Source: Anaeromyxobacter oryzae (GTDB lineage: Bacteria > Myxococcota > Myxococcia > Myxococcales > Anaeromyxobacteraceae). From it: a stretch of 64,000 nt of DNA. Shown here piece by piece: positions 14,530 to 28,600 of this stretch (position 1 is the stretch's first letter; the number at the start of each line of letters is the position of its first letter). Made by a program: the position numbers and the translations under genes. Where the stretch lies: assembly GCF_023169945.1 (NCBI RefSeq), contig NZ_AP025591.1:4646481-4710480 (forward strand), read 5' to 3'. The notes below the pieces were generated by a model. The model was not told the origin of the DNA. It did not search any database and saw only the letters and a list, made by a program, of their open reading frames with translations.

Positions 14530-15261
14530 ATGAGACAGCTCGATGCTGTGAGGTTCGGCGTCACGACGGTCGCCGTGGCGCTCGCGACCGGATGCGCGAC
14601 GAGCGGCGGGAACCACGGCTTGGCGACGGTGGCGGATGCCGACTTCGCGCAGCTCCAGGCCGCTCAAATGGGGTCGGTGGAGCTGGCGCGCCAGGCCGTG
14701 CTCCGCACCAAAGACGAGCAGGCCCGCGCGCAGCTGCGCCTCAAGGAGGCGTACCACGAGGATCAGCTGGCCGCGGCCGATGGAAAGAGCGCCCAGGCCG
14801 CGATCGAGCAGGCGAGGACCAAAGAGCAGATCGCCAACGAGCCCCGCGATCAGGCCAAGCTCGAGCAGGCGCGGGCGCAGATGGAGACGGCCAGCATGCA
14901 GCAGCGCGCAGCGGCCGCACGCGCCGATTACGCGAAGAAGCTGATCGACGCTCGCCTCTCCTCGGCCCAGGCGGCCGAAAAGAAGACGACGCTCGAGGAG
15001 GCGAAGCTCGAGGTCGCCAAGCTCCAGGCGCTGCAGAACGCCAACGTCCAGACGGCGGGCAAGTACGACATGACCGGATTCGAGCAGCGCGTGCAGAGCG
15101 CCGAGGCGGATTACCGGTCGGCGCAGCAGAAGGCCAAGGATCAGGAGTGGTGGGCGCAGAAGGCCCAGCGCGTGTACGGCGACGCGAAGAGCGAGCTCGA
15201 GGCGCAGACGGCCCCGGTGGGCACGCCGCAGACCGGCACTGGCTCCGGTGGAACCCGCTGA
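14530..15261 (+). CDS. Coiled-coil outer-membrane lipoprotein
   Basis: The protein has 243 residues. The signal runs to a lipobox ATGC with Cys22 lipidated. The mature protein is almost wholly alpha-helical, rich in Ala, Glu, Gln and Lys (QARAQLRLKEAY, EQARTKEQIANE), and predicted to form a long coiled coil from about 40 to 225, ending in a Gly/Thr-rich tail. It shares character with periplasmic spacer or TolA-like helical lipoproteins but no named family. A possible membrane-segment frame overlaps its 3' end and runs into the response regulator gene. Confidence 0.82.
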   Translation: MRQLDAVRFGVTTVAVALATGCATSGGNHGLATVADADFAQLQAAQMGSVELARQAVLRTKDEQARAQLRLKEAYHEDQLAAADGKSAQAAIEQARTKEQIANEPRDQAKLEQARAQMETASMQQRAAAARADYAKKLIDARLSSAQAAEKKTTLEEAKLEVAKLQALQNANVQTAGKYDMTGFEQRVQSAEADYRSAQQKAKDQEWWAQKAQRVYGDAKSELEAQTAPVGTPQTGTGSGGTR

Positions 15262-15478
15262 GTCGACCGTTGGTGAAAGGCAGGTCGGTGCCATCGGCCG
15301 GCGACGGTTCTCCGTCCTGCGCCGCATCTACCTGCTCGTCGTGGCGCTCGTCGGGGGCCTGGCCGGCATCGGCTGGGCGTGGCCTTGGCTCGACGCGTAT
15401 CTCGCGAGACGGCCTGCCGTGCAAGCAGGCGCCTCGATGGACGTGTCCAGTCCATGTCCCGGGGCTAGAGTGTCAAGC
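15248..15478 (+). other. Open extension with membrane segment, in frame with the NtrC-type regulator
   Basis: From a GTG at 15248 an open frame continues without a stop into the regulator start at 15479. Residues about 25-52 (RRIYLLVVALVGGLAGIGWAW) form a convincing transmembrane helix, and its codons keep the local G/C third-position bias. The last 25 codons before the regulator lose that bias. It may be a real N-terminal anchor, or the remnant of a small membrane-protein gene that lost its stop. I annotate the regulator from 15479. Confidence 0.4.
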
Positions 15479-16855
15479 ATGAAGCTCTTGCTCGCGGAGG
15501 ACGACCGGATCGTCAGGATCACGGTACGCGACGCTCTCGCGGACGACGGGTATGCCGTCACCGAATGCGCCGACGGGACCTCGGCGCTCCACGCCGTGCA
15601 GGCGGAAGTCTTCGACATCGTGCTGTCCGATGTTCGCCTGCCGGGCGTGGACGGCATCGCGCTGTTCCGAGCCGTCCGGCAGATCAACCCGCGCGCCGCA
15701 GTCGTGCTGATGACCGCGTTCGCGGACGCCGACGACGCCGTCGCGGTGATGCGCGAGGGCGCCCGCGACTACGTCCAGAAGCCGTTCGAGATCGACGAGC
15801 TCCTCCTTCGCATCAGGCGCGTCAGGGACGAGATCGCGTTTCGCGCCCGCATGGAGACGGGACAGGGCCCCACGCGGCCGGAGCCGCTCCGCGGGGATTC
15901 GCCCGCGATGCAGCGCCTGCGCGAGCGCGTGGACGCCGCAGCGCAGAGCGAGGTCGCGGTGCTCCTCACGGGCGAGACGGGCACCGGCAAGGACCTCTGC
16001 GCTCGTACGATTCACGAGCGGAGTCGTCGGGCGGACAAACCCTTCGTCGCGGTGAATTGCGCGGCCATACCGGACACGCTGTTCGAGGCGGAGCTCTTCG
16101 GCCACGAGAAGGGGGCGTTCACTGGCGCCGACCGGCGCCGCGTCGGGCGGTTCGAGGCGGCGAACGGTGGGACGCTGCTCCTGGACGAGGTCGGAGAGCT
16201 CGCGGCTGCAAGCCAGGCGAAGCTCCTTCGGGTGCTGGAGTCCTCCACGTTCGAGCCCGTCGGCTCGAGCCGTCCGGTCAAGGTGGACGTTCGCGTCCTC
16301 GCCGCGACGAACCGCGATCTCGCGGCGGACGCCGCCCAGGGTCGCTTTCGCCGCGATCTGTACTACCGGCTGAACGTCATCGACCTCCACGTCCCGCCAC
16401 TGCGAGAGCGCCGGGCGGACCTCCCGGTGCTGGTCCGCGCGTTCTCGGAGGAGATCGCGAGCCGCCAGGGACGCCCGGTGCCGGAGCTCGCGCCGGACGT
16501 GGTCGCCGCCCTGGCTGCGTACGACTATCCCGGGAACGTCCGCGAGCTGCTCCACGCGCTGGAGCGAGGCGTCGCGCTGTCTCGCGGCGGCCCGATCGAA
16601 CTCGACCACCTTCCGGCGGACATCGCCGCGACGTTCGCGCGAGAGCCCTCTGGCGCGCCGTCACTGGAGCATGTCCAGCCGCTCGGGGAGGCCGTCGCGG
16701 TGTTCGAGCGGGAGTACATCCAGCGGGTCCTCGACAAGGCCGGAGGGCACAAGACGCGCGCGGCGGCGCTGCTCGGCATCTCGCGCAAGAACCTCTGGGA
16801 GCGGCTTCGCGACGCGACGCGGGACGGTGGCGAGGACGACGCGAACGAGCGCTAG
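15479..16855 (+). CDS. NtrC-type response regulator (receiver, AAA+, Fis)
   Basis: The 458-residue regulator starts at ATG 15479. The receiver domain (1-118) has the acidic pair at 8-9, phospho-acceptor Asp51, Thr79 and Lys101. The sigma-54 interaction domain (about 138-370) has Walker A GETGTGKD (165-172), GAFTGA (212-217) and LLLDEVGE. A Fis-type helix-turn-helix ends the protein (HKTRAAALLGISRKNLWERL). All catalytic parts are intact. It faces the histidine kinase gene tail to tail, sharing the bases CTAG at 16852-16855 as both stop codons, so the two are a likely cognate pair. Confidence 0.94.
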   Translation: MKLLLAEDDRIVRITVRDALADDGYAVTECADGTSALHAVQAEVFDIVLSDVRLPGVDGIALFRAVRQINPRAAVVLMTAFADADDAVAVMREGARDYVQKPFEIDELLLRIRRVRDEIAFRARMETGQGPTRPEPLRGDSPAMQRLRERVDAAAQSEVAVLLTGETGTGKDLCARTIHERSRRADKPFVAVNCAAIPDTLFEAELFGHEKGAFTGADRRRVGRFEAANGGTLLLDEVGELAAASQAKLLRVLESSTFEPVGSSRPVKVDVRVLAATNRDLAADAAQGRFRRDLYYRLNVIDLHVPPLRERRADLPVLVRAFSEEIASRQGRPVPELAPDVVAALAAYDYPGNVRELLHALERGVALSRGGPIELDHLPADIAATFAREPSGAPSLEHVQPLGEAVAVFEREYIQRVLDKAGGHKTRAAALLGISRKNLWERLRDATRDGGEDDANER

Positions 16856-18291
16856 GAGGCGCGCGCCGCCGCGACGGCGCGAAGCCACAGCGTGACGACC
16901 GTACCTCCGCGCTCGGGGAACTCGAACCCGAGCTCGCCCCCGTGGGCGTCGGCGATGGTGCGCGTCACCGACAGGCCGAGGCCGGTGCCCTCGCCCTCGG
17001 GCTTCGTGCTGAAGAACGGGTCGAGGATGCGGTCGCGGATCTCGAGCGGGATCCCGGGACCGTCGTCCTCGACCGCGAGCCCGACCTGGCCGTCGCGATG
17101 CCGGATGCGGACGCGGACCTCGCCGCCCTCCGGTGTCACGTAGGCCGCGTTGAGCAGGAGGTTCACGAGCGCCTGGCCCGCCTGCCGGCGGTCGGCGAGG
17201 ACGGTCGCGTCGCCAACGCCGTCGACCGCGACCGACGCGCCGATCCGGCGCCGCTCGAGGAGCGGGCGGACGAGCCGCACGGCGTCCTCCGCGAGCTCAG
17301 GCGCGCTGCGCGGCTCGAGCCGCGTCGCGTGCGGTCTGCCGTAGTCGAGGAGCCGGCGGACGACCTCCTCGATCCTGGACAGCCCCTCGTCCATGAGCGC
17401 GAGGTACTCGCGGCGCTTCGGCTCGGCGAGGTCGCCGCGCTCGAGCCGCCGCACGCAGTTCTTGAGGCCGGCGAGCGGGTTGTTCACCTCGTGCGCGACG
17501 CCGGCCACGAGCGAGCCCAGCGCGGCGAGCCGCTCGGTCTCGACCGCCTTCTGGCGGGCCCGTTCCTGCTCCGCGTGCGCCGCCTCCAGGCGGCGCATCA
17601 TCTTGTTGAAGCGGTGCCCGAGCACGGCGACCTCGTCCGAGCCGCGGGCTTCCACGATCGGTCCCTCGACGAGGACCGCGGGGTCGAAGCGATCCGCCGC
17701 TTCCAGCATCTCGTTCACCGGCCGGGCGATGGCGCGTCCGGCCAGGAACGCCGCCGCGAACCCGGCCACGATGACCCCGAGGGCGAGCTCGCCGAGGTGG
17801 ATGGCCAGCTCGCGGCGGAGAACGCCCAGCGACTTCATGCCGAGCCCGAGCCGGACCTGTCCGAGGCTGCCGCCGAGGATGGGCTCGGAGAGGTCGAGGA
17901 CCTCGGCGCCGTCGAGCTTCACCAGGACCGGCGAGACGTCGCCGGCGCCACGGAGGCGCAGGAGACCTTCGGGCGTGTGACCGTCGAAGGACGACGCGAC
18001 GACGTGATCGCCCCGGACGATGAAGCAGTAGCTGACGTCACCCGAGCTCGCGGCCGCGCTGTGAACGAGGCCGTACAGCGTCATCACGTCGTTCACCAGC
18101 AGCGGATCGTCGGCCTGCTCCGCCACGAGGCGGGCGACGCGGTGGCCCAGCTCGGCCTGCGCGTCGAGGAGCGCTCGGGAGGCGATGCGGTTCCCGATGA
18201 CGAGGTGGACGGCGTGCATGGCGACCACGCCGAGCGCGGCGAGGAGCGCCAGCTTCATCCACAGCCGGAACCGCGGTCGACGGTTCGGCAC
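16852..18291 (-). CDS. Membrane histidine kinase
   Basis: The 479-residue protein starts at GTG 18291. TM1 is about 11-33, a periplasmic sensor of about 130 residues follows, TM2 is about 165-185, then HAMP (about 185-240). The HisKA domain has phospho-acceptor His267 in GVAHEVNNPL. The ATPase domain has NLLLNA, DDGPGIP and GTGLGLS. It starts one base after the stop of the binding-protein gene, so translation is coupled. The binding lipoprotein is therefore the likely ligand sensor feeding this kinase, and the convergent NtrC-type regulator the likely output. Confidence 0.94.
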   Translation of the reverse strand: MPNRRPRFRLWMKLALLAALGVVAMHAVHLVIGNRIASRALLDAQAELGHRVARLVAEQADDPLLVNDVMTLYGLVHSAAASSGDVSYCFIVRGDHVVASSFDGHTPEGLLRLRGAGDVSPVLVKLDGAEVLDLSEPILGGSLGQVRLGLGMKSLGVLRRELAIHLGELALGVIVAGFAAAFLAGRAIARPVNEMLEAADRFDPAVLVEGPIVEARGSDEVAVLGHRFNKMMRRLEAAHAEQERARQKAVETERLAALGSLVAGVAHEVNNPLAGLKNCVRRLERGDLAEPKRREYLALMDEGLSRIEEVVRRLLDYGRPHATRLEPRSAPELAEDAVRLVRPLLERRRIGASVAVDGVGDATVLADRRQAGQALVNLLLNAAYVTPEGGEVRVRIRHRDGQVGLAVEDDGPGIPLEIRDRILDPFFSTKPEGEGTGLGLSVTRTIADAHGGELGFEFPERGGTVVTLWLRAVAAARAS

Positions 18292-18292
18292 G

Positions 18293-19210
18293 TCAGCGAC
18301 CGTCGAGCATGCGCGCGGCCGACGCGTACAGCCCGGGCGAAGGCTCGGCGAACCGATCGAACCGGAGGAGCTTCAGCGTGGCGGCGGCTTCGGGGTCGCG
18401 GTCGAGGCCCAGCAGGACCTCGCGGAGGCGGGCACGGGCCTCAGGGGGCAGGCGCGTCGAGACGACGACCGGCATCGCGCCGAGGGGAGGGGACCTGTGA
18501 ATGACACGGAGCCGCTGCTCGAGCGTCGGGTCGCGGGCCTCGAGCTCGGCGAGCACACCCCCGTGGACGGCCGCGCCGTCCACGAGCCCGCTCGCGACTG
18601 CATGGATCGAGCGGTCGTGGCTGCCCGTGTAGGTGATGCCGCCGAAGAAGTGATCCGGATCGAACCCGCGATCCCGCAGGAGCCGGACCGGGTACAGGCG
18701 GCCGGAGAACGACAGCTCGTCGGTGAAGGCGAAGCGCCGCCCCTGGAGGCCGCCGATGTCCTTGATGTCGCTCGCGGCGGAGACGACGATCACGGACTCG
18801 TAGGACTCCCCACCCGCCACCACCGGAACGGCCACGATCTCCACCGCGCGCGGCGCACGCTTCTGGAGATCGAGGTACCCGCCGGTGCAGAGGAGGGCAG
18901 CGTCCAGCTCGCCGGAGATGAGCAGCTCGTTGACCTCGCGGTACGTCCGGCGCTGCTCGAACTGCACCGTCCGGTCGAGCAGCCGTCCGACCCGATCGAA
19001 GAGTCTGGTGTACGAGGCATACGTGTCGCGTGGCGATTCGATCGCGGCGACCGAGAACCGGAGCACGGTTGCCTGGGACGACGACGGCGCGGGAGCGGGT
19101 TTCGACGGCGGCGTCCGGGTCTCGACGACCGCCGTCCGGTAGGGAGACGTCTCGCAGGCGGTGAGCGCCGCCGCGACGAAGGTCAGGAACGCCATCGAGA
19201 GTAGCCGCAC
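18293..19210 (-). CDS. PhnD-like periplasmic-binding lipoprotein without transporter
   Basis: Starting at GTG 19210 gives 305 residues with a signal and lipobox LTAC (Cys19); an ATG at 19195 is an alternative. A Ser/Pro-rich linker of about 30 residues precedes a two-lobed binding domain of the phosphate/phosphonate (PhnD/PF12974) type, with strands such as LRFSVAAIESPRDTYASY and GRRFAFTDELSFSGR. No ABC permease or ATPase gene is near. Its stop is one base from the histidine kinase start, so it is most likely a dedicated ligand receptor for signalling rather than transport. Confidence 0.87.
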   Translation of the reverse strand: MRLLSMAFLTFVAAALTACETSPYRTAVVETRTPPSKPAPAPSSSQATVLRFSVAAIESPRDTYASYTRLFDRVGRLLDRTVQFEQRRTYREVNELLISGELDAALLCTGGYLDLQKRAPRAVEIVAVPVVAGGESYESVIVVSAASDIKDIGGLQGRRFAFTDELSFSGRLYPVRLLRDRGFDPDHFFGGITYTGSHDRSIHAVASGLVDGAAVHGGVLAELEARDPTLEQRLRVIHRSPPLGAMPVVVSTRLPPEARARLREVLLGLDRDPEAAATLKLLRFDRFAEPSPGLYASAARMLDGR

Positions 19211-19326
19211 GTGGTCATGGTACTTCGGTTCGGACTGGACCCGCACGCCAGCCGGCCACCGCACCGGGGCGAGCAGGCGAGCGGCCGCGCACCGTCTCCG
19301 CCGTCGTCGAGGCCGCGAATGGCAGC

Positions 19327-19382: not shown

Positions 19383-22364
19383 TTACGGCGCGGTCACCGA
19401 GGTGAAGCAGGAGCTCCAGAACGGATCCGCCCGGTGCTCGCTGAGCGGGAAGTACGACGGATAGAGGGCCGTCGTGTCGGGACACACGATCGACGCCCGG
19501 CGCGAGCCGACGTGGCACTTGCTGCACGAGCTCGGCATGAAGTCGAACCGGTCGTACTTCGTGCCGGACGCGCTCACGAACTGGGCGGTGTAGGCGGACT
19601 GGTACGTCGGGCCGAAGCGCGACACGGCGTTCGCCTTCCAGGGCCAGATGATGTCGAACACGTGCGAGGCCTCGTCGCCCTCGATGACGGTCTTCGCGCC
19701 GTTCGCGTCCGTGCCGGTGACGTACCCGCCGGACTTGGCGACCTTGGGCATGTGGCACGACGTGCAGCGGCCGACCGGCATCGACTCGTTGGTCGGGTCG
19801 TAGTTCGCCATCATGTTCGCCTTGTCGAACATGTGCTGGCCCACCGCGCTGGCGACCGCGATCTGGGAGCCCAGGATCTCGTCGGCGGTGGGCGCGTAGG
19901 CGACCCCGTTCAGCGCGGCGGCGCCGCCCGACGCCGCGTGGATGTTGGCGACGTCCAGCTTGGACACGCTTGCGAACGGCGTCCCGGGGATGCCGGCGTG
20001 GCAGCCCAGGCAAGCCACGTTGTTCCGGTAGTCGGCGGCCGTGAGCGCGACCTGGTCCTGGCCCGACTGGAGGGTGGGTGAGGACTTGAACAGCGAGTGC
20101 GGCTCGTGGCAGCTCCCGCAGGTCGTCTTCAGGTACGGGTTGTTCACGTGGGCGGACTGCTCGAGCATGATGTACTGCTGCCGGTGCTGCAGGCCGTAGA
20201 CCTTCCCGCCGTTCGCTGCCGGATCCCAGCTCGTCTCGTCGTCGGTGAGCCGCTCCTGCCAGTTATCGAAGAACGAGCCGAGGTCGTACACGCCGGGGAC
20301 GTAGCTCCCGCCGCCCACCAGGCTCGCGTTGCCGGCGTTCCAGGGGAACTCGAAGCCGTAGTCCTGCGCCGGGTTGACGTTCGTGCCGGCGTCGAACGCG
20401 TGGCACTTGCCGCAGAGCTGCCGCTCGGAGGACGCCGTCAGGTACTTCGGGTTGATGATCGCGTTGCCACGGCCGCCGCCCGCATTGGCGTGCTCCGAGC
20501 CGGGCCCGTGGCACTGCTCACAGGTCACGTTCTCGTCGAGGAACGCGTAGGCCTTGATGGCCGCGAACCGGAACGGGCTGTTGTTCGGGGCGCCATCGCG
20601 GCCGAAGGGCAGCGTGACATCGAGGAGGTCCCAGTCGAGCGTCAGGCCGGTGTTGTGGCACCCGGCGCAGGCGTGCGAGAAGGTCCGGGCGCGGCTCGAC
20701 CACGACTCGCCGGGGAACTTCTGCTCGGTGGGGTGGTAGCCGTTGATGCCGTAGACCCCGTTGTTGCGGTCACCGGACTCGACGAACTGGATCGGCAGCG
20801 TGAGGCTGTCGAGATCCTTGCCGGCCGTGTAGCCCCACGCGGCGGCCGCCTTGACGTCCGAGAGCGGGCCCTGGAAGCGCTGCTTGAAGACGCCCATGTT
20901 CTGGTGGGCGTTCCCGTTCCCGTCCTTGTCGCCCTGCCCGCCGTAGATGACGGCGATGCGGACCATCGGCACGGCCGGGTTCGTGTTGGCGACCGCATCG
21001 AAGATGCTGCCGTCGCTGCACGTGTACGGCGAGCCGCCGAACTTCTGGACGTACTCGTCGTTCACGATGGTGATGCCGTCCTTGAGGTTGCAGAGGTACA
21101 CGTTGACCTGCCCGTCGGCGTACTTGGTCGTGCCGCCAGCCGCGCAGGTGGCGCCGCTCGGAGCGTTGCCGTAGATGCAAGGGTCGTTCGCGTCGTAGTT
21201 CGGGTTGGTCGCCTTCACGCCCGGCCAGTTGGGCGCGACGATGTCGTTGGAGTCCTGCGGCAGCATCTTGGTGTACGTGCGCGAAGCGGCGGCCGTGCCG
21301 TAGCTCGCGTTGCTGAGCGAGGTCACCGTCGGCGCGAAGGTCGCGGGGGCGGAGAGCGTGAGGTGCGTGTCGTCCGCGATCGAGAGGACCGTGCCGAGCT
21401 GCTGCCAGCCGAGGCCGACCGGTGTGTAGCCGAGCTTGTCGCCGACCTGGACCTGCGTCGTGAACGACGTGCCCGCGCCGACCACCGCGGACGACGCGGC
21501 TGCGACGGAGATGGTGCCCGCGAGCGGGACCATCACGACGCGGGGCGTCTTCAGCGTCGCGTTGAGCATGCGGGAGAACGCACCCGCCACCGCGTGGCCG
21601 GTGCCGTCGCGCTGCACGCGGGTGAGCGAACGGAAGTGCGCGGAGCTCTGGTGGGTCGTGGCCACGCTGCCGTGGCAGGCCTGGCAGAGGGTCATGCCCG
21701 TGAACCGGGCGGCGTCGCTCGAGCGCGCCGAGAGAACGATCGTGACGTCCGAGACGCTCGCGCCCGCCGTGACGAATACCGCGCCGCGCGTCTCACCGTC
21801 GAGGTAGCTCGCGCTCGGCGCCTTGGCGCTCAGGAACACCGGACCGGGCGGGACGCCGGCGAGGGTGAACGCACCGTCCGCGCCCGTCGTGGCGCTCTGG
21901 CCGGACCCGGCGGTCACGAGGACGCCCGCCAGCGGGCTCGCCGCCGAGGTCGCGTCCGTGACCTTGCCCGCGATGGAGCCCGGGGCGGTCGCGGGGAGCT
22001 GGAGGACCAGATTGACGTTGGCCGTGCCGTTCGCCACGACTCCGACGCTGGCAAGCGTGAACGGGGCGAAGCCGTCCTTCGTCGCCGTGACGGCGTAGGC
22101 GCCGATGGCGACGTCCGGGATCGTGAACGTGCCGTCCGCCGCGGTCGTCGCCGTCGTGGTCGGCGGATCCGTCTGGACCGTGGCGCCCGCGAGCGGAGCG
22201 CCGCCCGCGTCCTTCACCCGGCCGGCCAGGTTGCCGCGGCTGGAGCCGGGCTGGCCCGGTTGCCCGGGCTGACCCGGCTCGCCCTGCAGGCCGGCGGGGC
22301 CCTTCGAGCCCTGACAGGCTGCCATGAACGTGAGGGCGACTGCGACGACGAGGACTCTCTTCAT
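19383..22364 (-). CDS. Octaheme c-type cytochrome lipoprotein with collagen-like and CarboxypepD_reg-like segments
   Basis: The protein has 993 residues. The lipobox is at MAAC (Cys17), followed by a collagen-like Gly-x-x run (about 20-40). Two carboxypeptidase-regulatory-like beta-sandwich repeats follow (about 44-120 and 128-212). The rest carries eight CXXCH haem motifs: CQACH (227-231), CAGCH, CEQCH, CGKCH, CGSCH, CLGCH, CTSCH and CSKCH. The arrangement resembles surface-exposed electron-transfer lipoproteins of metal-reducing delta-type bacteria. The N-terminal segments may act as a spacer or adhesive stalk. A cytochrome-porin gene is divergent across a 351-base regulatory gap. The electron partner is inferred, not shown. 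Confidence 0.92.
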   Translation of the reverse strand: MKRVLVVAVALTFMAACQGSKGPAGLQGEPGQPGQPGQPGSSRGNLAGRVKDAGGAPLAGATVQTDPPTTTATTAADGTFTIPDVAIGAYAVTATKDGFAPFTLASVGVVANGTANVNLVLQLPATAPGSIAGKVTDATSAASPLAGVLVTAGSGQSATTGADGAFTLAGVPPGPVFLSAKAPSASYLDGETRGAVFVTAGASVSDVTIVLSARSSDAARFTGMTLCQACHGSVATTHQSSAHFRSLTRVQRDGTGHAVAGAFSRMLNATLKTPRVVMVPLAGTISVAAASSAVVGAGTSFTTQVQVGDKLGYTPVGLGWQQLGTVLSIADDTHLTLSAPATFAPTVTSLSNASYGTAAASRTYTKMLPQDSNDIVAPNWPGVKATNPNYDANDPCIYGNAPSGATCAAGGTTKYADGQVNVYLCNLKDGITIVNDEYVQKFGGSPYTCSDGSIFDAVANTNPAVPMVRIAVIYGGQGDKDGNGNAHQNMGVFKQRFQGPLSDVKAAAAWGYTAGKDLDSLTLPIQFVESGDRNNGVYGINGYHPTEQKFPGESWSSRARTFSHACAGCHNTGLTLDWDLLDVTLPFGRDGAPNNSPFRFAAIKAYAFLDENVTCEQCHGPGSEHANAGGGRGNAIINPKYLTASSERQLCGKCHAFDAGTNVNPAQDYGFEFPWNAGNASLVGGGSYVPGVYDLGSFFDNWQERLTDDETSWDPAANGGKVYGLQHRQQYIMLEQSAHVNNPYLKTTCGSCHEPHSLFKSSPTLQSGQDQVALTAADYRNNVACLGCHAGIPGTPFASVSKLDVANIHAASGGAAALNGVAYAPTADEILGSQIAVASAVGQHMFDKANMMANYDPTNESMPVGRCTSCHMPKVAKSGGYVTGTDANGAKTVIEGDEASHVFDIIWPWKANAVSRFGPTYQSAYTAQFVSASGTKYDRFDFMPSSCSKCHVGSRRASIVCPDTTALYPSYFPLSEHRADPFWSSCFTSVTAP

Positions 22365-22418
22365 GCTGCTCCTCCCGAGGAGATGGGGACCAACGCCAGA
22401 AGTCTGGGCGACCCCATC

Positions 22419-22434
22419 TGCACGCCGTTGGCCA
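22419..22434 (-). promoter_or_regulatory. Weak sigma-54-like element upstream of the octaheme gene
   Basis: On the minus strand TGGCCAACGGCGTGCA keeps the GG and GC of the -24/-12 consensus at the right spacing and matches 8 of the 12 defined positions. Distance from the -12 to the ATG is about 55 bases. The match is too weak to trust without experiment. Confidence 0.3.
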
Positions 22435-22504
22435 TCGATCGGCGCCGCGTTCCGGACGCCAACCCCCGGACACGACGATGGCTTCTCGCGAGAGGCGATG
22501 GGCG

Positions 22505-22524
22505 ACGTTACCGGCGGGTAACGT
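22505..22524. promoter_or_regulatory. Perfect dyad, candidate operator between cytochrome genes
   Basis: ACGTTACC (22505-22512), spacer GGCG, GGTAACGT (22517-22524). The eight-base arms are perfect. It lies midway in the 351-base divergent gap (22365-22715) and is relatively AT-rich for this DNA, so it is a good candidate for a dimeric regulator that controls both cytochrome genes. Confidence 0.55.
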
Positions 22525-22607
22525 GGCGGAAAGAGCCGCTACCGTGAGGTGACGCTCCGGGAGGAACGCCACGGCGCGCCACCGGCAGGGTGACACCCCC
22601 CGGAGCC

Positions 22608-22624
22608 GGTCACCACCCGTGACC
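22608..22624. promoter_or_regulatory. Second dyad in the cytochrome intergenic region
   Basis: GGTCAC (22608-22613), spacer CACCC, GTGACC (22619-22624). It is 92 bases before the cytochrome-porin start, where a promoter-proximal operator is plausible. Nothing else in this gap looks like a gene. Confidence 0.4.
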
Positions 22625-22715
22625 TGCGTGGCGAGATTGCGCGTACCCAGCGTCGCTGGCCGGATTCTGGCCGTGCCCGGTCACGGACCGGTGATCAACG
22701 GAAGAGGAGCATCAG

Positions 22716-24227
22716 GTGAAAAGCGCTGCCCGCGCAGGACTCCTCGTCGCAGCCGTCGCATCCAGCCTCTGTCTCGCCCCCAACGCCTTGGCCGTTCCGA
22801 CCTACGCGCGTCTCTACGGCGTGGACTGCTCGAACTGCCACTCGATGTGGGGATCCCTCAACGTCAACGGCGCGACGTTCCGGCTGAGCGGCTACCGCGC
22901 GATGGCAGGCCAGGACCTCCCGCCGCTCGACAAGCCGATCGAGATCGGCAAGGGAGGCGCGGTGTCGCTCCCGGGCGTCTTCCCGATCTCGCTCATCACC
23001 GGGGTGGCGATCGAGTACCGCCGCGAGCAGCGGGACGCGCCGGCGGCGCTGCGCGATCCGCCGGGAGAGAGCGGCCCCATCACGCGCGCCGGGTCCAACT
23101 TCACCGTCGCCGATGCGTCCATCTTCCTCAGCGCGCCGCTCGGCAAGCACCTCTCGTTCTTCATCGAGTTCCCGATGTTCGAGACGAAGGCGTGGGAGTT
23201 CACCCCGACCGGGCCCGGCGAGGCCCGCGTCGCGCAGCACGGGAACATCCAGCTGCCGACCGAGACGCCCGTCTTCGAGGTCGCGAAGTTCTGGTGGAAC
23301 AACCTGCTCGGCAGCCGAGCGCCGCGCGACAGCGTGAACCTCCTCGGCGGCATCACCCAGCTGCCGCTCGCGTATCCATCCGGCAAGGTACGACTGTCGG
23401 TGAATCAGTACCTCGTGTACGAGCGGCGCGGTCTCGACTACATCAGCCCGCGCCGCGTCGATGATCTCTTCACGGATCCCGCGATCTCCGACCGGCTCTT
23501 CCGGCTGAGCGAGCCGCAGGGACTGCTCGAGGTGAACGGGATGATCGTCCCCGGCGCCCCGGTGGATGCGGTCGCGAAGCCGCAGACGCCGTGGCTCGAG
23601 TACCACGTCGGCGGCACGACCGCGTCCAACGCCGCATCCGACGGAAACCTCGCGAAGGGCGTGTACGGACGGTTCGTGGGACGCTGGTACGGCCAGGCGC
23701 TCGGGGTGTTCGGGATCTGGACGCCGAACCTCGTCGACGACGCGATGATCTCGGCCGCGACGCTGACCGGCCCGGGCGGCGCCCGGATCATCAAGGACGG
23801 ACACTTCCAGAGCGCCCGGGTCAGCGCCGGCCCCGATGCGACGCTCAGCCTCGCGCCGTTCAAGATCCCCGTCTCGCTGGAGAACAACGTACTCTACAGC
23901 CGCGAGAGCAACCCCACCGGCTACGGTAAGGAGTTCGCCTGGTGGGGCGGGTTCCACCAGCTCAACTACTTCCCGACGAAGAGGTCGGTCGTCTACGCAC
24001 GCTACGACTGGATCTTGGGGGACTACTTCGACGACACCGGCGCGGGCGGCGACAGCAAGGCTCATCCGCGCGAATGGGACCTCATCGGCGGGCTGCAGTT
24101 CCTCGTCCTCGAGAACCTCAAGCTCATCGGCGAGTACCGGCACCACGAGTTCGACGACCGGATCACGGGCGGGAGCTCGACCTTGAAGGACGACGGCTTC
24201 ACCGTCCGGGCGATGACCGGCTTCTAG
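22716..24227 (+). CDS. Fused monoheme cytochrome-porin, Cyc2-like
   Basis: The 503-residue protein starts at GTG 22716 behind GGAAGAGGAG. A signal peptide ends at NALA (26). A single haem motif CSNCH (38-42) lies only 12 residues into the mature protein, and is followed by the pattern LNVNGATFRLSGY seen in fused cytochrome-porins. The rest is rich in alternating amphipathic strands with aromatic girdle residues and ends in Phe, as outer-membrane barrels do. By analogy with Cyc2, which passes electrons from outside the cell through the barrel, it may move electrons across the outer membrane. It is divergent from the octaheme gene. Its stop shares CTAG with the next gene. Confidence 0.85.
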   Translation: MKSAARAGLLVAAVASSLCLAPNALAVPTYARLYGVDCSNCHSMWGSLNVNGATFRLSGYRAMAGQDLPPLDKPIEIGKGGAVSLPGVFPISLITGVAIEYRREQRDAPAALRDPPGESGPITRAGSNFTVADASIFLSAPLGKHLSFFIEFPMFETKAWEFTPTGPGEARVAQHGNIQLPTETPVFEVAKFWWNNLLGSRAPRDSVNLLGGITQLPLAYPSGKVRLSVNQYLVYERRGLDYISPRRVDDLFTDPAISDRLFRLSEPQGLLEVNGMIVPGAPVDAVAKPQTPWLEYHVGGTTASNAASDGNLAKGVYGRFVGRWYGQALGVFGIWTPNLVDDAMISAATLTGPGGARIIKDGHFQSARVSAGPDATLSLAPFKIPVSLENNVLYSRESNPTGYGKEFAWWGGFHQLNYFPTKRSVVYARYDWILGDYFDDTGAGGDSKAHPREWDLIGGLQFLVLENLKLIGEYRHHEFDDRITGGSSTLKDDGFTVRAMTGF

Positions 24228-27200
24228 CCGCGCACGGCCCCGCCGTCGCAGCGCCGCGGTCCTGCCAGGTGACCGCGCTCGAGGACCGTCTTTCCTTGCC
24301 GCTCGGCGATCCGCCGTGCCTGGAGGCAGAAGCTCTCCAGCTTGGCCACGAGCAGCTGCGGGTACGGGTTGCCGTCCACCTCGATGGTGAGGAACGGGAT
24401 CCGGTCGTCCGGCCCGAAGCGGCCGCCCTCGTACGGCACGCCGGCCTGGGCGTAGGCCCGCGCCCTGTCCTCCTGGCGGAGGTGGTTCGAGGCCACCGCC
24501 TCCGTGAAGCGGGTCACCATGCAGCCGAACGGGCCGATGTTGACGAAGCCCGCCACCTTGTCGAGGCCGTCCTTGAGGATCTTGCCGGTGGAGAGCCCCG
24601 GCTCGCCGGTGAGGCGGTGCGAGATGAGGTGCTCGGAGTACCGGTCGTACTCCGAGACGTCGATCCGCTCGGGGTCGTAGAGGCCGGAGCGGCCGAGGAT
24701 GTCCTTGATCTTCCGCTCGGTGACGAGCTGCACAGCGTCCGAGACGTAGAACTCGAACCAGTCCTTGAGCCGGTACCGGGGCTTCCAGACGCCCTTCTTG
24801 ATGAGGTGGTTGTTGTAGAAGAGCCACTCGTGGATGGAGGCGCTGCGCGCCACGAAGCCCTTCTCCGCGAGGATCCGCGCCAGGCCTCCGTTGGACCAGC
24901 CGTCGCGCCGCACGAAGATCTCGCCGGTGATCACCACCTGCGGTGCGTCCGCGAGGGGCAGGCGCAGCGGGATCGCGGCGAGGCGGGCCGACGTCGCCTC
25001 CAGCTGCCGGTAGAGGTCCACGTCGGAGCGGCCGGCGATGATCTCCACGACGCGGGCGAACTCCTTCTCCAGGACGGCCAGGGCCCCCGGGACGTCCACG
25101 GCCAGCGCGAGGAGGGCGTTGCGGACGTCGTCGAGCACGTCCGAGACGACGATGGCCTTCCAGGCCACCAGCGAGAACTCGGATCCCATTCCCGCGTAGC
25201 CGACCTCGCCCGCGAAGTAGAACGGGACGGCGTCCGGGATGCGCCGCTCGCGAATGAGCAGCTCGGTCGTGACGAAGTACTGGCCGAGGCGGCAGTAGCC
25301 GTGCGCCCGCGGCATGAAGATGGCCAACTTCTCGCCCGGCCGCCGGTGGTGCTCCAGGTAGCGCAGGAAGGAGCCCAGGATCGCGATCAGCGGGATGCAC
25401 TCCTTGCCGGTGAGCACCGAGCGGCCGAGGCGGCGCACCTCCTCGTCGCCCGGGGGCAGCGCCACGGCGTGCACGCCCACCCTCTGCATGGCGGCCGCGA
25501 GCGCGCGCGTGCTGAGGTCGCCCATGGAGGGCAGCAGCACCTTCACCGAAGGGTCCTTGAAGGGCGTGCGACGGCCTGCCGAGTCGACGAACACCTGCTG
25601 ATCGCCGTCCGCCTCGAGCCGCGACGGTCGGAAGTCGCCGCTGACCGGAGGCGTCCGCCGGAGCTGCCGGTGGTTCCGGACCACGTCGAGGAACGCGTCG
25701 ATGCGAGTGTTGATCCCGGCGTCGGCGGTGTGCGCGTCCAGCTCCAGCGTCAGCGAGGGCTTGGGCCCCAGCAGGCGGCGCACGTGAGGCACGAGGAAGG
25801 AATCGAAGGCGCACAGGAAGCTGGTGGCGTAGACGGCGTAGAGCTGCTCGTCGCGCGCCACGAGCCGGGCCGTGCGCAGCAGCTTCTGGCCGATCTCCCA
25901 GTGCATGCTGGCGCGGAAGGGATCCGGCAGCTCCTCGCCGCGGGCGTCGAGCATGTCGTACGGGATGACGAGCACGTCGCGGCTGGCGAGCTTCCGCGGG
26001 ATGCCCTTGTTGGCGTCGTCGGTGAGCGCGTTGTGCGGGCGGCCGAACAGGACGCACGCGAAGGCGCCCGGCGTGGCCCGCAGCCGCTCCAGCGCAGCCC
26101 GTCCGATCTCGCGGCACTCCTGCTCGAAGGCGTGCTGCACCTCGACGGCCGAGCCGAAGGCCGCCTCCGCGGCGCGCCGCGAGAACCCGAGCCGGTGGCC
26201 CAGGTCCACGAAGGCCCGCACCTGCGATGCGTAGCCCTCGCGGAAGTTGAGCGTCGGGGCGAGCACGCGGCCGCGCACGGCCTTGTCCTCGAAGGCCGCC
26301 GGCAGCCAGTAGGGCTCGCCCTGCGAGAAGAGGCAGGTGGCGCAGAAGTCCTGCCGGTCGTCGCCGCCCGGCACCCACAGCTCGCGCACCTGCGGGAGGA
26401 AGTACCAGTCCGGCGCCTGCTCGGTGAGGCGATCGAAGAAGCCGATGGCGAGCTGGGACGGGTAGCAGAGCGAGGTGGTCTGGCGGGTCAGCGCCGCCTC
26501 GTTCATCCGATCGGGCACCACGACCCGGCAACCCAGCGCCGTGAAGAAGCGATGGTAGAGGGGGAAGACGCCGTGCGTGAGCAACGCGCGGTTGATGCCG
26601 ACGGTGGGGCCGGCGCCGGCCGGCGCGGTGGTGGCGTACTTCTCGAAGAGGAGCCGGGTGCGGACCTTCACCAGATCCTGCCGCTCGGCGTCCACCGCGC
26701 CGTGGCCGCGGTGCAGGTCGTAGTACTTCGCGCAGGCGCCGCCGAACGGATAGGTCTTCCCCTCCACCACCACCCGGCTGATGCGGCACTTCAGGTCGCA
26801 GCGCTCGCGCCCGCCCGGGCAGGTGAAGGGCTCCTCGTGGACCACCTGGCGCGCGGCGATCGCCGCGAGGTCGAAGCGGCGCGCCTCGAGCAGCCCGAGG
26901 CCGATCCGCTTCTTCACCTCCAGCGCGACGCCGAAGGCGCCCATCAGCCCGGGCTCGGGCGGCACGACGATGGGCTTGCCCAGCACCGCCGCCATCGCCA
27001 GCGGCACCGCCGCGTTGTAGCAGACGCCGCCCTGCATGAAGATCTTCTCGCCCACCGGGCGGTGGCCCTTCACGCGGTTCATGTAGTTGAGGCAGATCGA
27101 GTACACGAGGCCGGCCAGCACGTCCTCGCGCGAGATGCCCTCGTGCACCGCGTTCTTCACGTCGGAGGAGATGAACGCGGCGCACTGGTCGTTGAAGTTC

Positions 27201-28600
27201 GGCGGCCGGCGGGCGGCGAGGGCGAGCGGCGCGATCTCGTCGGCGTGCAGGTGGAACGACTCGAACGCCGACTCCTCGAGGAAGGAGCCGGTCCCGGCGG
27301 AGCAGGCCTCGTTCATCGCGTAGTCGGACGCCACGCCGTGGGTGAGGTGGGTGTACTTGGCGTCCTGGCCGCCGATCTCGAAGATGGTGTCCACCTCGGG
27401 GTCGAAGAAGGCGGCGGCCGCGGCGTGGGCCACGATCTCGTTCACCACGCCCTCGGTGAGCGCGTACAGACCGGCGATGTGGCGGCCCGAGCCGGTCACG
27501 CCGATCCCGATCACCTCCACGCGCGTGCCGGCGAGCCGCTGCAGCAGGGCTCGGAAGCAGGCCCGCGAGGCCTCCACCGGGTCGCCGCTGGTCCGCAGGT
27601 AGATCGAGCCGAGGAAGCGGTCGTCGCCGACGCGCAGCAACACCGCCTTCGTGGTGGTGGACCCCACGTCGAGGCCCACCACGCAGCGGTCGCCGGGCGC
27701 GGCCGTGGCGTACTCCAGCGACTCGAAGCGGACCAGGGACTCCGCACCGCGCAGCGGCGGCAGGAAGTCGAAGCTCGAGTGGCCGGCGCGGACGAGCGGG
27801 CGGCCCGGCGCGACGGGTGAGCCGCGCTCGAACGCGGCCAGGGCAGCGCCGAGCGCCTCGAACCACGCGGCCTCGGGCGGCACGTGGACCCGCCCCCCGA
27901 GGCGGGCCTCGAGATGGCGGACCACGGCGGCGTTGAGCGCCGTGCCGCCCACGAGCATCACCTTCCGGTGCGGGATGCGCGCGCAGAGGTCGGCGACCTT
28001 CGACGCGATCATCTCGCACAGGCCGGCGGTGACGTTCTCGATGGGCTCGCCCTTGTTCAGGGCGTGCGTGCAGTCCGACTTGCAGAACACCGAGCAACGC
28101 CCGGACACCGCGTAGGGCCGGCCCTTCAGGCCGAGCTCGACGGCCCGCTCCAGCGACAGATCCATGCGGCGCGTCTGCTGCAGGAAGAACTCGCCGGTAC
28201 CGGAGGCGCACTTGTTCCCGGTGTGCACGGCGGCGATGCGCTGCTCGGTGTCCAGCGCGTACACCATGAAGGTCTCGCCGCCGGCGGAGACGAGCGTGTC
28301 GTAGCGCTCGCCGCGGGCCACCTGGCGCAGGGCGTACTCGGTCGCCTCCGGCTCGGCGATGGAGGGCAGCTCCACCGAGGTGCGCAGGCTACGGCCGGTG
28401 ATCAGCACGGGCGCGTCGCCGGTGGCGAGCCCGGCCATGACGTCGACGAGGACGTCCTTCGGGTTGCCCTGGTGGTTGCGCCGCACGACTCCCGCGACCC
28501 GCGGCGCCTCGTCTTCCCGATCCCGCCGCAGCTCGACGGCGGTGACGGTGGACGCGCCCACGCAGAGGCCGAAGGCGCGCTGCACCGATGTGGTGGCCAT
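24224..28600 (-). CDS. Tandem BadF/BadG-type activase fused to DUF2229 (1,458 residues)
   Basis: This giant protein has two ASKHA-fold activase domains in tandem. The first (about 1-290) has cluster-type cysteines in KCASGTG (Cys131) and CSVFCKSDC (169-177). The second (about 310-590) starts VVGLDVGSTTTKAVLL and has NEACSAGTG and DQCAAF. Then come the DUF2229 region (about 700-950) and a long C-terminal half with Cys-containing HgdB-like stretches. Such fusions are ATP-driven electron donors to 2-hydroxyacyl-CoA dehydratase or double-cubane-cluster proteins. It is not next to its substrate protein here. It is convergent with the cytochrome-porin gene, overlapping by four bases. The exact partner is unknown. 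Confidence 0.9.
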   Translation of the reverse strand: MATTSVQRAFGLCVGASTVTAVELRRDREDEAPRVAGVVRRNHQGNPKDVLVDVMAGLATGDAPVLITGRSLRTSVELPSIAEPEATEYALRQVARGERYDTLVSAGGETFMVYALDTEQRIAAVHTGNKCASGTGEFFLQQTRRMDLSLERAVELGLKGRPYAVSGRCSVFCKSDCTHALNKGEPIENVTAGLCEMIASKVADLCARIPHRKVMLVGGTALNAAVVRHLEARLGGRVHVPPEAAWFEALGAALAAFERGSPVAPGRPLVRAGHSSFDFLPPLRGAESLVRFESLEYATAAPGDRCVVGLDVGSTTTKAVLLRVGDDRFLGSIYLRTSGDPVEASRACFRALLQRLAGTRVEVIGIGVTGSGRHIAGLYALTEGVVNEIVAHAAAAAFFDPEVDTIFEIGGQDAKYTHLTHGVASDYAMNEACSAGTGSFLEESAFESFHLHADEIAPLALAARRPPNFNDQCAAFISSDVKNAVHEGISREDVLAGLVYSICLNYMNRVKGHRPVGEKIFMQGGVCYNAAVPLAMAAVLGKPIVVPPEPGLMGAFGVALEVKKRIGLGLLEARRFDLAAIAARQVVHEEPFTCPGGRERCDLKCRISRVVVEGKTYPFGGACAKYYDLHRGHGAVDAERQDLVKVRTRLLFEKYATTAPAGAGPTVGINRALLTHGVFPLYHRFFTALGCRVVVPDRMNEAALTRQTTSLCYPSQLAIGFFDRLTEQAPDWYFLPQVRELWVPGGDDRQDFCATCLFSQGEPYWLPAAFEDKAVRGRVLAPTLNFREGYASQVRAFVDLGHRLGFSRRAAEAAFGSAVEVQHAFEQECREIGRAALERLRATPGAFACVLFGRPHNALTDDANKGIPRKLASRDVLVIPYDMLDARGEELPDPFRASMHWEIGQKLLRTARLVARDEQLYAVYATSFLCAFDSFLVPHVRRLLGPKPSLTLELDAHTADAGINTRIDAFLDVVRNHRQLRRTPPVSGDFRPSRLEADGDQQVFVDSAGRRTPFKDPSVKVLLPSMGDLSTRALAAAMQRVGVHAVALPPGDEEVRRLGRSVLTGKECIPLIAILGSFLRYLEHHRRPGEKLAIFMPRAHGYCRLGQYFVTTELLIRERRIPDAVPFYFAGEVGYAGMGSEFSLVAWKAIVVSDVLDDVRNALLALAVDVPGALAVLEKEFARVVEIIAGRSDVDLYRQLEATSARLAAIPLRLPLADAPQVVITGEIFVRRDGWSNGGLARILAEKGFVARSASIHEWLFYNNHLIKKGVWKPRYRLKDWFEFYVSDAVQLVTERKIKDILGRSGLYDPERIDVSEYDRYSEHLISHRLTGEPGLSTGKILKDGLDKVAGFVNIGPFGCMVTRFTEAVASNHLRQEDRARAYAQAGVPYEGGRFGPDDRIPFLTIEVDGNPYPQLLVAKLESFCLQARRIAERQGKTVLERGHLAGPRRCDGGAVRG

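What the first reader, a model, noticed from the sequence alone, without database searches (positions are those of the whole stretch)
19383..24227. Octaheme collagen-like lipoprotein divergent from a Cyc2-like fused cytochrome-porin
The rightward gene has one CXXCH 12 residues into the mature protein followed by an outer-membrane-barrel-like sequence, the layout of Cyc2-type porins that carry electrons through the outer membrane. Across a 351-base regulatory gap sits an eight-haem lipoprotein whose N-terminus has a Gly-x-x collagen-like run and two CarboxypepD_reg-like domains. Together they look like an extracellular electron-transfer conduit in which a stalked surface cytochrome hands electrons to a one-haem porin.
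Basis: partly seen in the sequence, partly recalled or inferred. Interest (0 to 1): 0.75.

Follow-up and report, generated by a model that had tools for sequence, protein, structure and literature searches.

The report
Arsenic-type sensor beside haem-porin, octahaem
Next to a gene pair for an outer-membrane pore carrying one haem and a stalked eight-haem protein sits a sensor system of the kind bacteria use to detect arsenic, which suggests a new sort of respiration linked to arsenic-like compounds.

Summary
The sequence observation holds: an eight-CXXCH lipoprotein (19383-22364, -) and a one-CXXCH barrel protein (22716-24227, +) flank a 351-bp gap. The porin is a divergent clade beside the Cyc2 family: full-length relatives were found only in three proteobacterial MAGs, and both Cyc2 consensus motifs fail in all four. 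The octahaem is related to the OcwA/OmhA surface reductases; 7 of 8 homologues in the window's phylum have at least 6 collagen-like triplets near the lipobox.

The 'PhnD-like' gene 18293-19264 matches ArrX (9e-40) and AioX (1e-26) far better than PhnD (9e-6). With its kinase and sigma54 regulator it forms an arsenic-type XSR three-component system. In relatives this system adjoins a TtrA-like molybdoenzyme, not found in this genome. The window's only GTTNC-N6-GNAAC box, a strict form of the published AioR site, lies between the two cytochrome genes; a similar box precedes the octahaem of a same-genus genome.

Best reading: an oxyanion-induced outer-membrane redox module, not simply a metal-reduction conduit. 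XSR identity is well supported; control of these two genes is likely; ligand, electron direction and the octahaem's side of the membrane are inferred.

The parts
19383..22364 (-). octahaem c-type lipoprotein, OcwA/OmhA-related, 993 aa
   Evidence: 8 CXXCH; profile A2 hits OcwA 6i5b 1.5e-19 and OmhA 6qvm 5.8e-6
22242..22301 (-). collagen-like Gly-X-Y run directly after the lipobox (aa 22-41)
   Evidence: 6 clean triplets here; runs of 6-38 triplets in 7 of 8 own-phylum homologues
21999..22229 (-). first CarboxypepD_reg domain of the stalk (a second follows)
   Evidence: PF13620 7.7e-26, 2 stretches
22716..24227 (+). monohaem outer-membrane barrel protein (Cyc2-related haem-porin), 503 aa
   Evidence: one CXXCH at 22827-22841; relatives L031-L033 at 51-52%; Foldseek to porins from low-confidence models
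22365..22715 (.). divergent intergenic regulatory region, 351 bp
22507..22522 (.). AioR-type box GTTACCGGCGGGTAAC, 142 bp before the octahaem start and 193 bp before the porin start
   Evidence: only GTTNC-N6-GNAAC in 64 kb; 0.27 expected, at least one in 23 of 100 shuffles; published AioR consensus GTT-N10-AAC
22657..22672 (+). weak sigma54 -24/-12-like site before the porin
   Evidence: score 12.0 of 15.4 on a recalled consensus, not above chance
22419..22434 (-). weak sigma54 -24/-12-like site before the octahaem
   Evidence: score 12.2 of 15.4 on a recalled consensus, not above chance
18293..19264 (-). ArrX/AioX-type periplasmic oxyanion sensor (X)
   Evidence: ArrX 9.3e-40, AioX 1.1e-26, PtxB 1.4e-14, PhnD 8.8e-6; Cys106 equivalent kept, Asp210 equivalent is His
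16852..18291 (-). sensor histidine kinase (S)
   Evidence: HAMP, HisKA, HATPase_c; 57-59% to the kinase in 4 relative XSR loci
15248..16855 (+). sigma54 response regulator (R); likely true start about 15479
   Evidence: Response_reg, Sigma54_activat, HTH_8; 65-69% to R of 5 relative XSR loci

Best explanation
This is a regulated outer-membrane redox module. A periplasmic sensor of the ArrX/AioX type (X) binds a metalloid or similar oxyanion and signals through its kinase (S) to a sigma54 activator (R). R binds the box at 22507-22522 and switches on both divergent genes: the haem-porin and the octahaem lipoprotein. The porin sits in the outer membrane with its single haem near the periplasmic mouth. 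The octahaem, anchored by lipid on a collagen-like and beta-sandwich stalk, is its electron partner and probably the terminal reductase. In relatives the same XSR system adjoins a TtrA-like molybdoenzyme; here that enzyme was not found and the haem proteins take its place beside the regulator. Shown by sequence: gene content, homologies, presence and place of the box, conserved XSR. Inferred: that R uses this box, the ligand, electron direction (I favour outward), pairing of the two proteins, and the side on which the octahaem lies.
For: X is far closer to ArrX/AioX than to PhnD and keeps six of seven pocket residues. X orthologues at 52-57% lie in five relatives, with S and R; in four of these a gene of about 1070-1100 aa lies beside them, the three scanned matching TtrA best; no match to that enzyme in G000 at E<=1e-50. 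The only GTTNC-N6-GNAAC in 64 kb is in the octahaem/porin gap. The same box occurs beside X in L129, L130, L131 and L132, in a broader L133 region, and 153 bp before the G001 octahaem with a good sigma54 site between: 10 in 3315 bp against 0.05 expected from other loci. AioR's documented consensus is GTT-N10-AAC. A kinase and sigma54 regulator lie within 10 kb of the porin in 4 of 4 loci, and an octahaem lies next to it in 2 of 4 (window, L033). The octahaem profile hits OcwA and OmhA.
Against: The box test is partly post hoc: I saw the palindrome first and sharpened the pattern on the relatives. One such box somewhere in 64 kb is expected in 23 of 100 shuffles; only its place is telling. The bare core GTT-N10-AAC has 10 window matches (2.0 expected), nine of them inside called genes. 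By the published degenerate motif the site scores 14 of 16, reached by 106 of 500 shuffled gaps. The aioBA promoters have two tandem palindromes; the window has one clear box. The sigma54 sites in the gap are no better than chance. The sensor's Asp210 equivalent is His, so its ligand may not be arsenic. X lies 118 bp downstream of the octahaem on the same strand, so nearness alone could be accidental. No Cyc2-like porin was seen in the stretches fetched around the other seven octahaems. The proteobacterial porins use kinases that are not orthologues of S.
Confidence: 0.5

Rival explanations
1. One reading: a general extracellular conduit for Fe(III), Mn(IV) or electrodes, with the octahaem on the cell surface and the porin passing electrons through the membrane.
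For: Octahaem related to OcwA and OmhA, surface terminal reductases of Gram-positive metal reducers; barrel with one haem.
Against: XSR regulator and box point to oxyanion control. One haem cannot span the membrane alone (inference; compare). OcwA itself also reduces nitrite and hydroxylamine.
Confidence: 0.2
2. Inward electron flow: a Cyc2-like iron oxidase taking electrons from Fe(II) in the pore, with the octahaem as periplasmic acceptor.
For: Cytochrome domain homologous to Cyc2-like proteins; L031-L033 have a small monohaem c just downstream, as expected of a periplasmic carrier.
Against: Both Cyc2 consensus motifs fail in 4 of 4; XSR control does not suggest iron oxidation.
Confidence: 0.12
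3. The octahaem is a periplasm-facing reductase of a soluble oxyanion, and the porin an entry channel whose haem has a separate, minor role.
For: [quoted passage not shown] the best barrel matches of one model are OprO and the phosphate channel OprP.
Confidence: 0.15

Closest known systems
Cyc2 fused cytochrome-porin (PMC8406198, passages read)
   Same: one CXXCH after the signal peptide, fused to a barrel-like part whose structural matches include OprO/OprP; cytochrome domain homologous
   Different: AXPXFAR[QK][TY] reads AVPTYARLY and PXL reads GSL; separate clade with support 1.0; sigma54 two-component genes near it, and an octahaem beside it in 2 of 4 loci
OcwA (6I5B) and OmhA (6QVM), surface reductases of Gram-positive metal reducers
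   Same: sequence-profile match over the haem core; multihaem; OcwA is NrfA/c554-related
   Different: 8 haems, not 9 or 11; lipoprotein with collagen-like and CarboxypepD stalk; large insertion between haems 1 and 2
AioXSR / ArxXSR / ArrXSR arsenic-oxyanion three-component systems (PMC5908839, passages and one section read)
   Same: PhnD-fold sensor with Cys106 equivalent, kinase, AAA+ sigma54 regulator as in AioR/ArxR (not the CitB type of ArrR), a box of the GTT-N10-AAC form
   Different: Asp210 equivalent is His; no molybdoenzyme beside it; adjoins haem proteins instead

Membership tests
Cyc2 | single CXXCH near the N-terminus of an exported protein | tested here: met
   aa 38-42; 54 of 54 aligned rows have one CXXCH
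Cyc2 | AXPXFAR[Q/K][T/Y] motif upstream of CXXCH | tested here: not met
   AVPTYARLY; 0 of 4 in this clade, 35 of 50 other rows (the rows were gathered with a looser form of this motif)
Cyc2 | PXL motif downstream of CXXCH | tested here: not met
   GSL or GAL; 0 of 4 here, 50 of 50 other rows, counting PXL 2-4 residues after CXXCH
Cyc2 | fused 16-stranded barrel like OprO/OprP | tested here: inconclusive
   Foldseek hits OprO, OprP, PorB but mean pLDDT only 41.6 and 44.3 and low TM-scores
Cyc2 | falls inside Cyc2 phylogeny clusters 1-3 | not tested
   no named Cyc2 reference sequences were fetched; only a tree against unnamed Cyc2-like relatives
Cyc2 | oxidises Fe(II) | not testable with these tools
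   needs purified protein
OcwA/OmhA reductases | sequence homology over the haem core | tested here: met
   profile 1.5e-19 and 5.8e-6; single sequence 7.1e-5 to OcwA
OcwA/OmhA reductases | nine (OcwA) or eleven (OmhA) haems | tested here: not met
   8 CXXCH; which OcwA haem is missing could not be decided
OcwA/OmhA reductases | cell-surface terminal reductase activity | not testable with these tools
   needs fractionation and assay
XSR arsenic sensor systems | X closer to ArrX/AioX than to PhnD, with Cys106 | tested here: met
   Cys at aa 126
XSR arsenic sensor systems | complete pocket Y88 C106 Y131 S161 S163 H192 D210 | tested here: not met
   6 of 7 by spacing and alignment (Cys to Tyr is 29 residues here, 25 in AioX); D210 equivalent is His234, Asp in 6 of 6 relatives and in ArrX
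XSR arsenic sensor systems | adjacent kinase and AAA+ sigma54 regulator | tested here: met
XSR arsenic sensor systems | molybdoenzyme target beside the cluster | tested here: not met
   octahaem and porin instead; no match to the relatives' TtrA-like enzyme in G000 at E<=1e-50; ArrA, AioA and ArxA were not searched for
XSR arsenic sensor systems | binds arsenite or arsenate | not testable with these tools
   needs binding assay

The most novel reading that the evidence does not exclude
A molybdenum-free respiration of a metalloid oxyanion, or of a mineral carrying it, at the outer membrane: an arsenic-type sensor, retuned at its Asp210 position, drives a one-haem porin and a collagen-stalked octahaem reductase in place of the usual molybdoenzyme.
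Probability: 0.25. Interest if true: 0.85.

Novelty: new variant of a known kind. Interest (0 to 1): 0.62.

Why it matters
XSR systems are described as controlling arsenic molybdoenzymes (PMC5908839), and AioR also a chemoreceptor gene (PMC5335332); passages read of both. One next to, and probably controlling, a haem-porin and an octahaem would widen what oxyanion respiration can be made of, and it gives a testable inducer for a Cyc2-related protein. A 2020 paper of which I saw only the title, in two reference lists, links arsenate reduction in Anaeromyxobacter PSR-1 to a tetrathionate reductase homologue, and the PSR-1 genome report found no arr gene (abstract in a listing); that these concern the same enzyme and group as here is my inference. 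For collagen-like stalks on multihaem lipoproteins one search gave two papers, neither read; for AioX with multihaem cytochromes or porins one search gave a listing only, in which no title describes such a link.

Tried and rejected
Rejected: strict Cyc2 membership (motifs). Rejected: orthology of the two-component pairs of L031-L033 to the window's S and R; their kinases are only 28-33% identical to S, over about 230-255 aa. Inconclusive: which OcwA haem is missing. Not significant: sigma54 sites in the window gap (the consensus and weights are recalled) and the degenerate AioR score. The downstream gene 24224-28600 is a CoA-activase family protein with 33-36% matches in the genus, judged unrelated. 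A PDB profile search with the 54-row porin alignment gave only the N-terminus of OmhA at 0.16. Of its 54 members one matched Pfam Porin_4 (0.00069) and one an NCBIfam usher model (0.0066). Co-occurrence of an ArrX-like protein with the octahaem, 5 of 8 octahaem genomes against 5 of 37 others (Fisher p 0.008), mixes two searches and unevenly related genomes and is only suggestive.

Full report
Observation. By GC at codon positions both look like the coding frames. No tool names the host; I infer an Anaeromyxobacter-like myxobacterium from recalled gene content, so below I write 'the window's phylum'.

The porin. A pattern scan of one genome for each of 84,980 species found three relatives, all MAGs (titled Sterolibacterium, L031; Betaproteobacteria, L032; Proteobacteria from Lake Pavin, L033), 51-52% identical in the alignment. 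The scan needs exact peptide words and may leave out records near the window's own genome, so more relatives may exist. Profile searches hit 39 of 369 genomes of the class of G043 and 30 of 195 genomes of the window's phylum at E<=1e-6, but only G043 and the window's own genome matched over the full length; the other listed matches cover the cytochrome end. In an earlier single-sequence search one gene, in G025, also matched at the C-terminal end. The cytochrome end is Cyc2-like. The Cyc2 paper (PMC8406198, passages read) defines AXPXFAR[Q/K][T/Y] before and PXL after CXXCH. Of 50 other rows in my alignment 35 have the first and 50 the second; the four of this clade have neither. The rows were gathered with a loose form of the first motif, which favours that count, not the PXL count. 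In a FastTree of 54 sequences and 118 columns the four form one clade with support 1.0 on a long branch. No named Cyc2 sequences were fetched, so clusters 1-3 were not tested. The AF2 models are poor (mean pLDDT 41.6 and 44.3), yet the top Foldseek matches are outer-membrane porins, including OprO and OprP, which the Cyc2 paper also names; TM-scores are low.

The octahaem. A four-row profile matches OcwA (6I5B) at 1.5e-19 and OmhA (6QVM) at 5.8e-6, and more weakly NrfA and c554. PMC12203936 gives OcwA and OmhA as terminal reductases of Gram-positive bacteria and PMC6703420 describes OcwA as related to NrfA, c554 and MccA (passages). In the window's phylum 8 of 195 genomes have a homologue at E<=1e-30. 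Seven of the 8 have at least 6 consecutive Gly-X-Y triplets close after the lipobox, from 6 (L109) to 38 (L113); the eighth, G036, has a short broken run. Among 306 called genes of at least 100 aa in the window and 21 other loci, only these 7 show such a run. The L033 octahaem has a Thr/Ser-rich stretch instead. So the stalk is a real feature of the lineage and its length varies; whether it forms a triple helix is not shown. Regulators lie beside the octahaem in 5 of the 8: the window, a sigma54 activator in G001, a sigma54 response regulator in G036, and HisKA_3-type kinases in G422 and G563; none was seen in G030, G421 and G536, two of them on stretches of 6-11 kb.

The regulator. 18293-19264 is called PhnD-like by the libraries, but against solved structures ArrX scores 9.3e-40 and AioX 1.1e-26, while the phosphite binder PtxB scores 1.4e-14 and PhnD 8.8e-6. 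The AioX pocket given in PMC5908839 (passages) is kept at six of seven positions, including the cysteine that PhnD lacks; the Asp210 equivalent is His in the window, Asp in 6 of 6 relatives and in ArrX. A histidine kinase follows, and a converging sigma54 regulator. Orthologues of X at 52-57% lie in five relatives, and a sixth (G004) has a 35% one. Beside the five, R is 65-69% identical and S, in the four loci where my crude gene finder called it, 57-59%. In four of the five a gene of about 1070-1100 aa lies near them: the three I scanned match TtrA best, far below its curated cut-off (425-475 against 1750 bits), and the fourth (L130) looks alike at its start only by eye. The fifth contig (L133) ends after a three-haem frame and fragments. 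The window's genome has no match to that enzyme at E<=1e-50; 4 of 25 genomes do. Other arsenic molybdoenzymes were not searched for.

The box. AioR's documented consensus is GTT-N10-AAC, and the abstract reports a footprinted site (PMC5335332, passages). The stricter form GTTNC-N6-GNAAC occurs once in the window, at 22507-22522, between the two cytochrome genes (0.27 expected; at least one in 23 of 100 shuffles). It occurs twice, 44 bp apart, in the X gaps of L129 and L131, once in those of L130 and L132, twice in a broader 1.7-kb region of L133, and 153 bp before the octahaem of the same-genus genome G001, with a near-consensus sigma54 site between box and gene. In these regions 10 hits stand in 3315 bp against 0.05 expected from 257 kb of 15 other loci with 4 hits. 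L131 has two more, 43 bp apart, and L053 one more, outside the counted regions. The genome as a whole has 42 such boxes, against 5 for the reversed control, so the pattern is common for other reasons too. Against: the bare core has 10 matches in the window, nine inside called genes; the degenerate published motif does not separate the site from shuffles; aioBA promoters have two tandem palindromes 100-200 nt upstream (PMC3834237, passages) while the window has one clear box; and the -24/-12 candidates at 22657 and 22419 are not above chance.

Neighbourhood. In the three MAG loci a kinase and sigma54 regulator precede the porin and a small monohaem cytochrome c follows within 0.7 kb; sigma54-like sites scoring 13.7-14.7 of 15.4 lie upstream of the porin. 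These kinases are not orthologues of S. L033 also has an octahaem just downstream, 29% identical to the window's; the genomes of L031 and L032 gave no match to it at E<=0.001. The window's octahaem is closer to two of its own phylum (43% and 38%). So the same kind of octahaem lies beside this porin family in two distant genomes, perhaps by independent steps, which argues for a functional link; two cases are few. Around the other seven octahaems of the phylum no Cyc2-like motif was seen in the stretches fetched, some of which are short. The L033 genome has a 34% relative of X on another contig.

Mechanism. See Best explanation. The regulatory half rests on sequence; the biochemical half is inference. 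The Cyc2 paper argues for the haem at the periplasmic mouth of the barrel. If that holds here, the octahaem can meet it from the periplasm, or from outside only if it reaches into the pore.

Noticed in passing
L051 2073-10072 (G000:C1 near 5256068): The genome's other Cyc2-like gene lies in line with a molybdopterin/4Fe-4S fusion protein, an NrfD protein and a pentahaem c7; I recall this as the make-up of alternative complex III.
   Followed up: partly
L053, L131 (G001:C340): One 73-kb contig of a same-genus genome carries XSR, two TtrA-like enzymes and the octahaem, the last about 30 kb from X; the frames beside the octahaem look like an ArsR regulator and a permease by eye only.
   Followed up: partly
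L031 852-5001: Upstream of the porin cluster an 8-CXXCH protein, a cytochrome b-like membrane protein and a porin-like protein form another cluster (the last two judged by eye).
   Followed up: no
L033 1611-4381: A second kinase and sigma54 regulator pair, 51% and 63% identical to the pair beside the porin, lies a few kb away.
   Followed up: no
L033 14521-14862: A 113-aa frame with one CXXCH downstream of the octahaem resembles a piece of it; the octahaem query matched nearby. Possibly a remnant of a second copy.
   Followed up: no
window 24224-28600: A 1458-aa CoA-activase (BcrAD_BadFG plus DUF2229) gene overlaps the porin's end by 4 bp on the other strand; its same-genus matches are only 33-36% identical.
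   Followed up: partly
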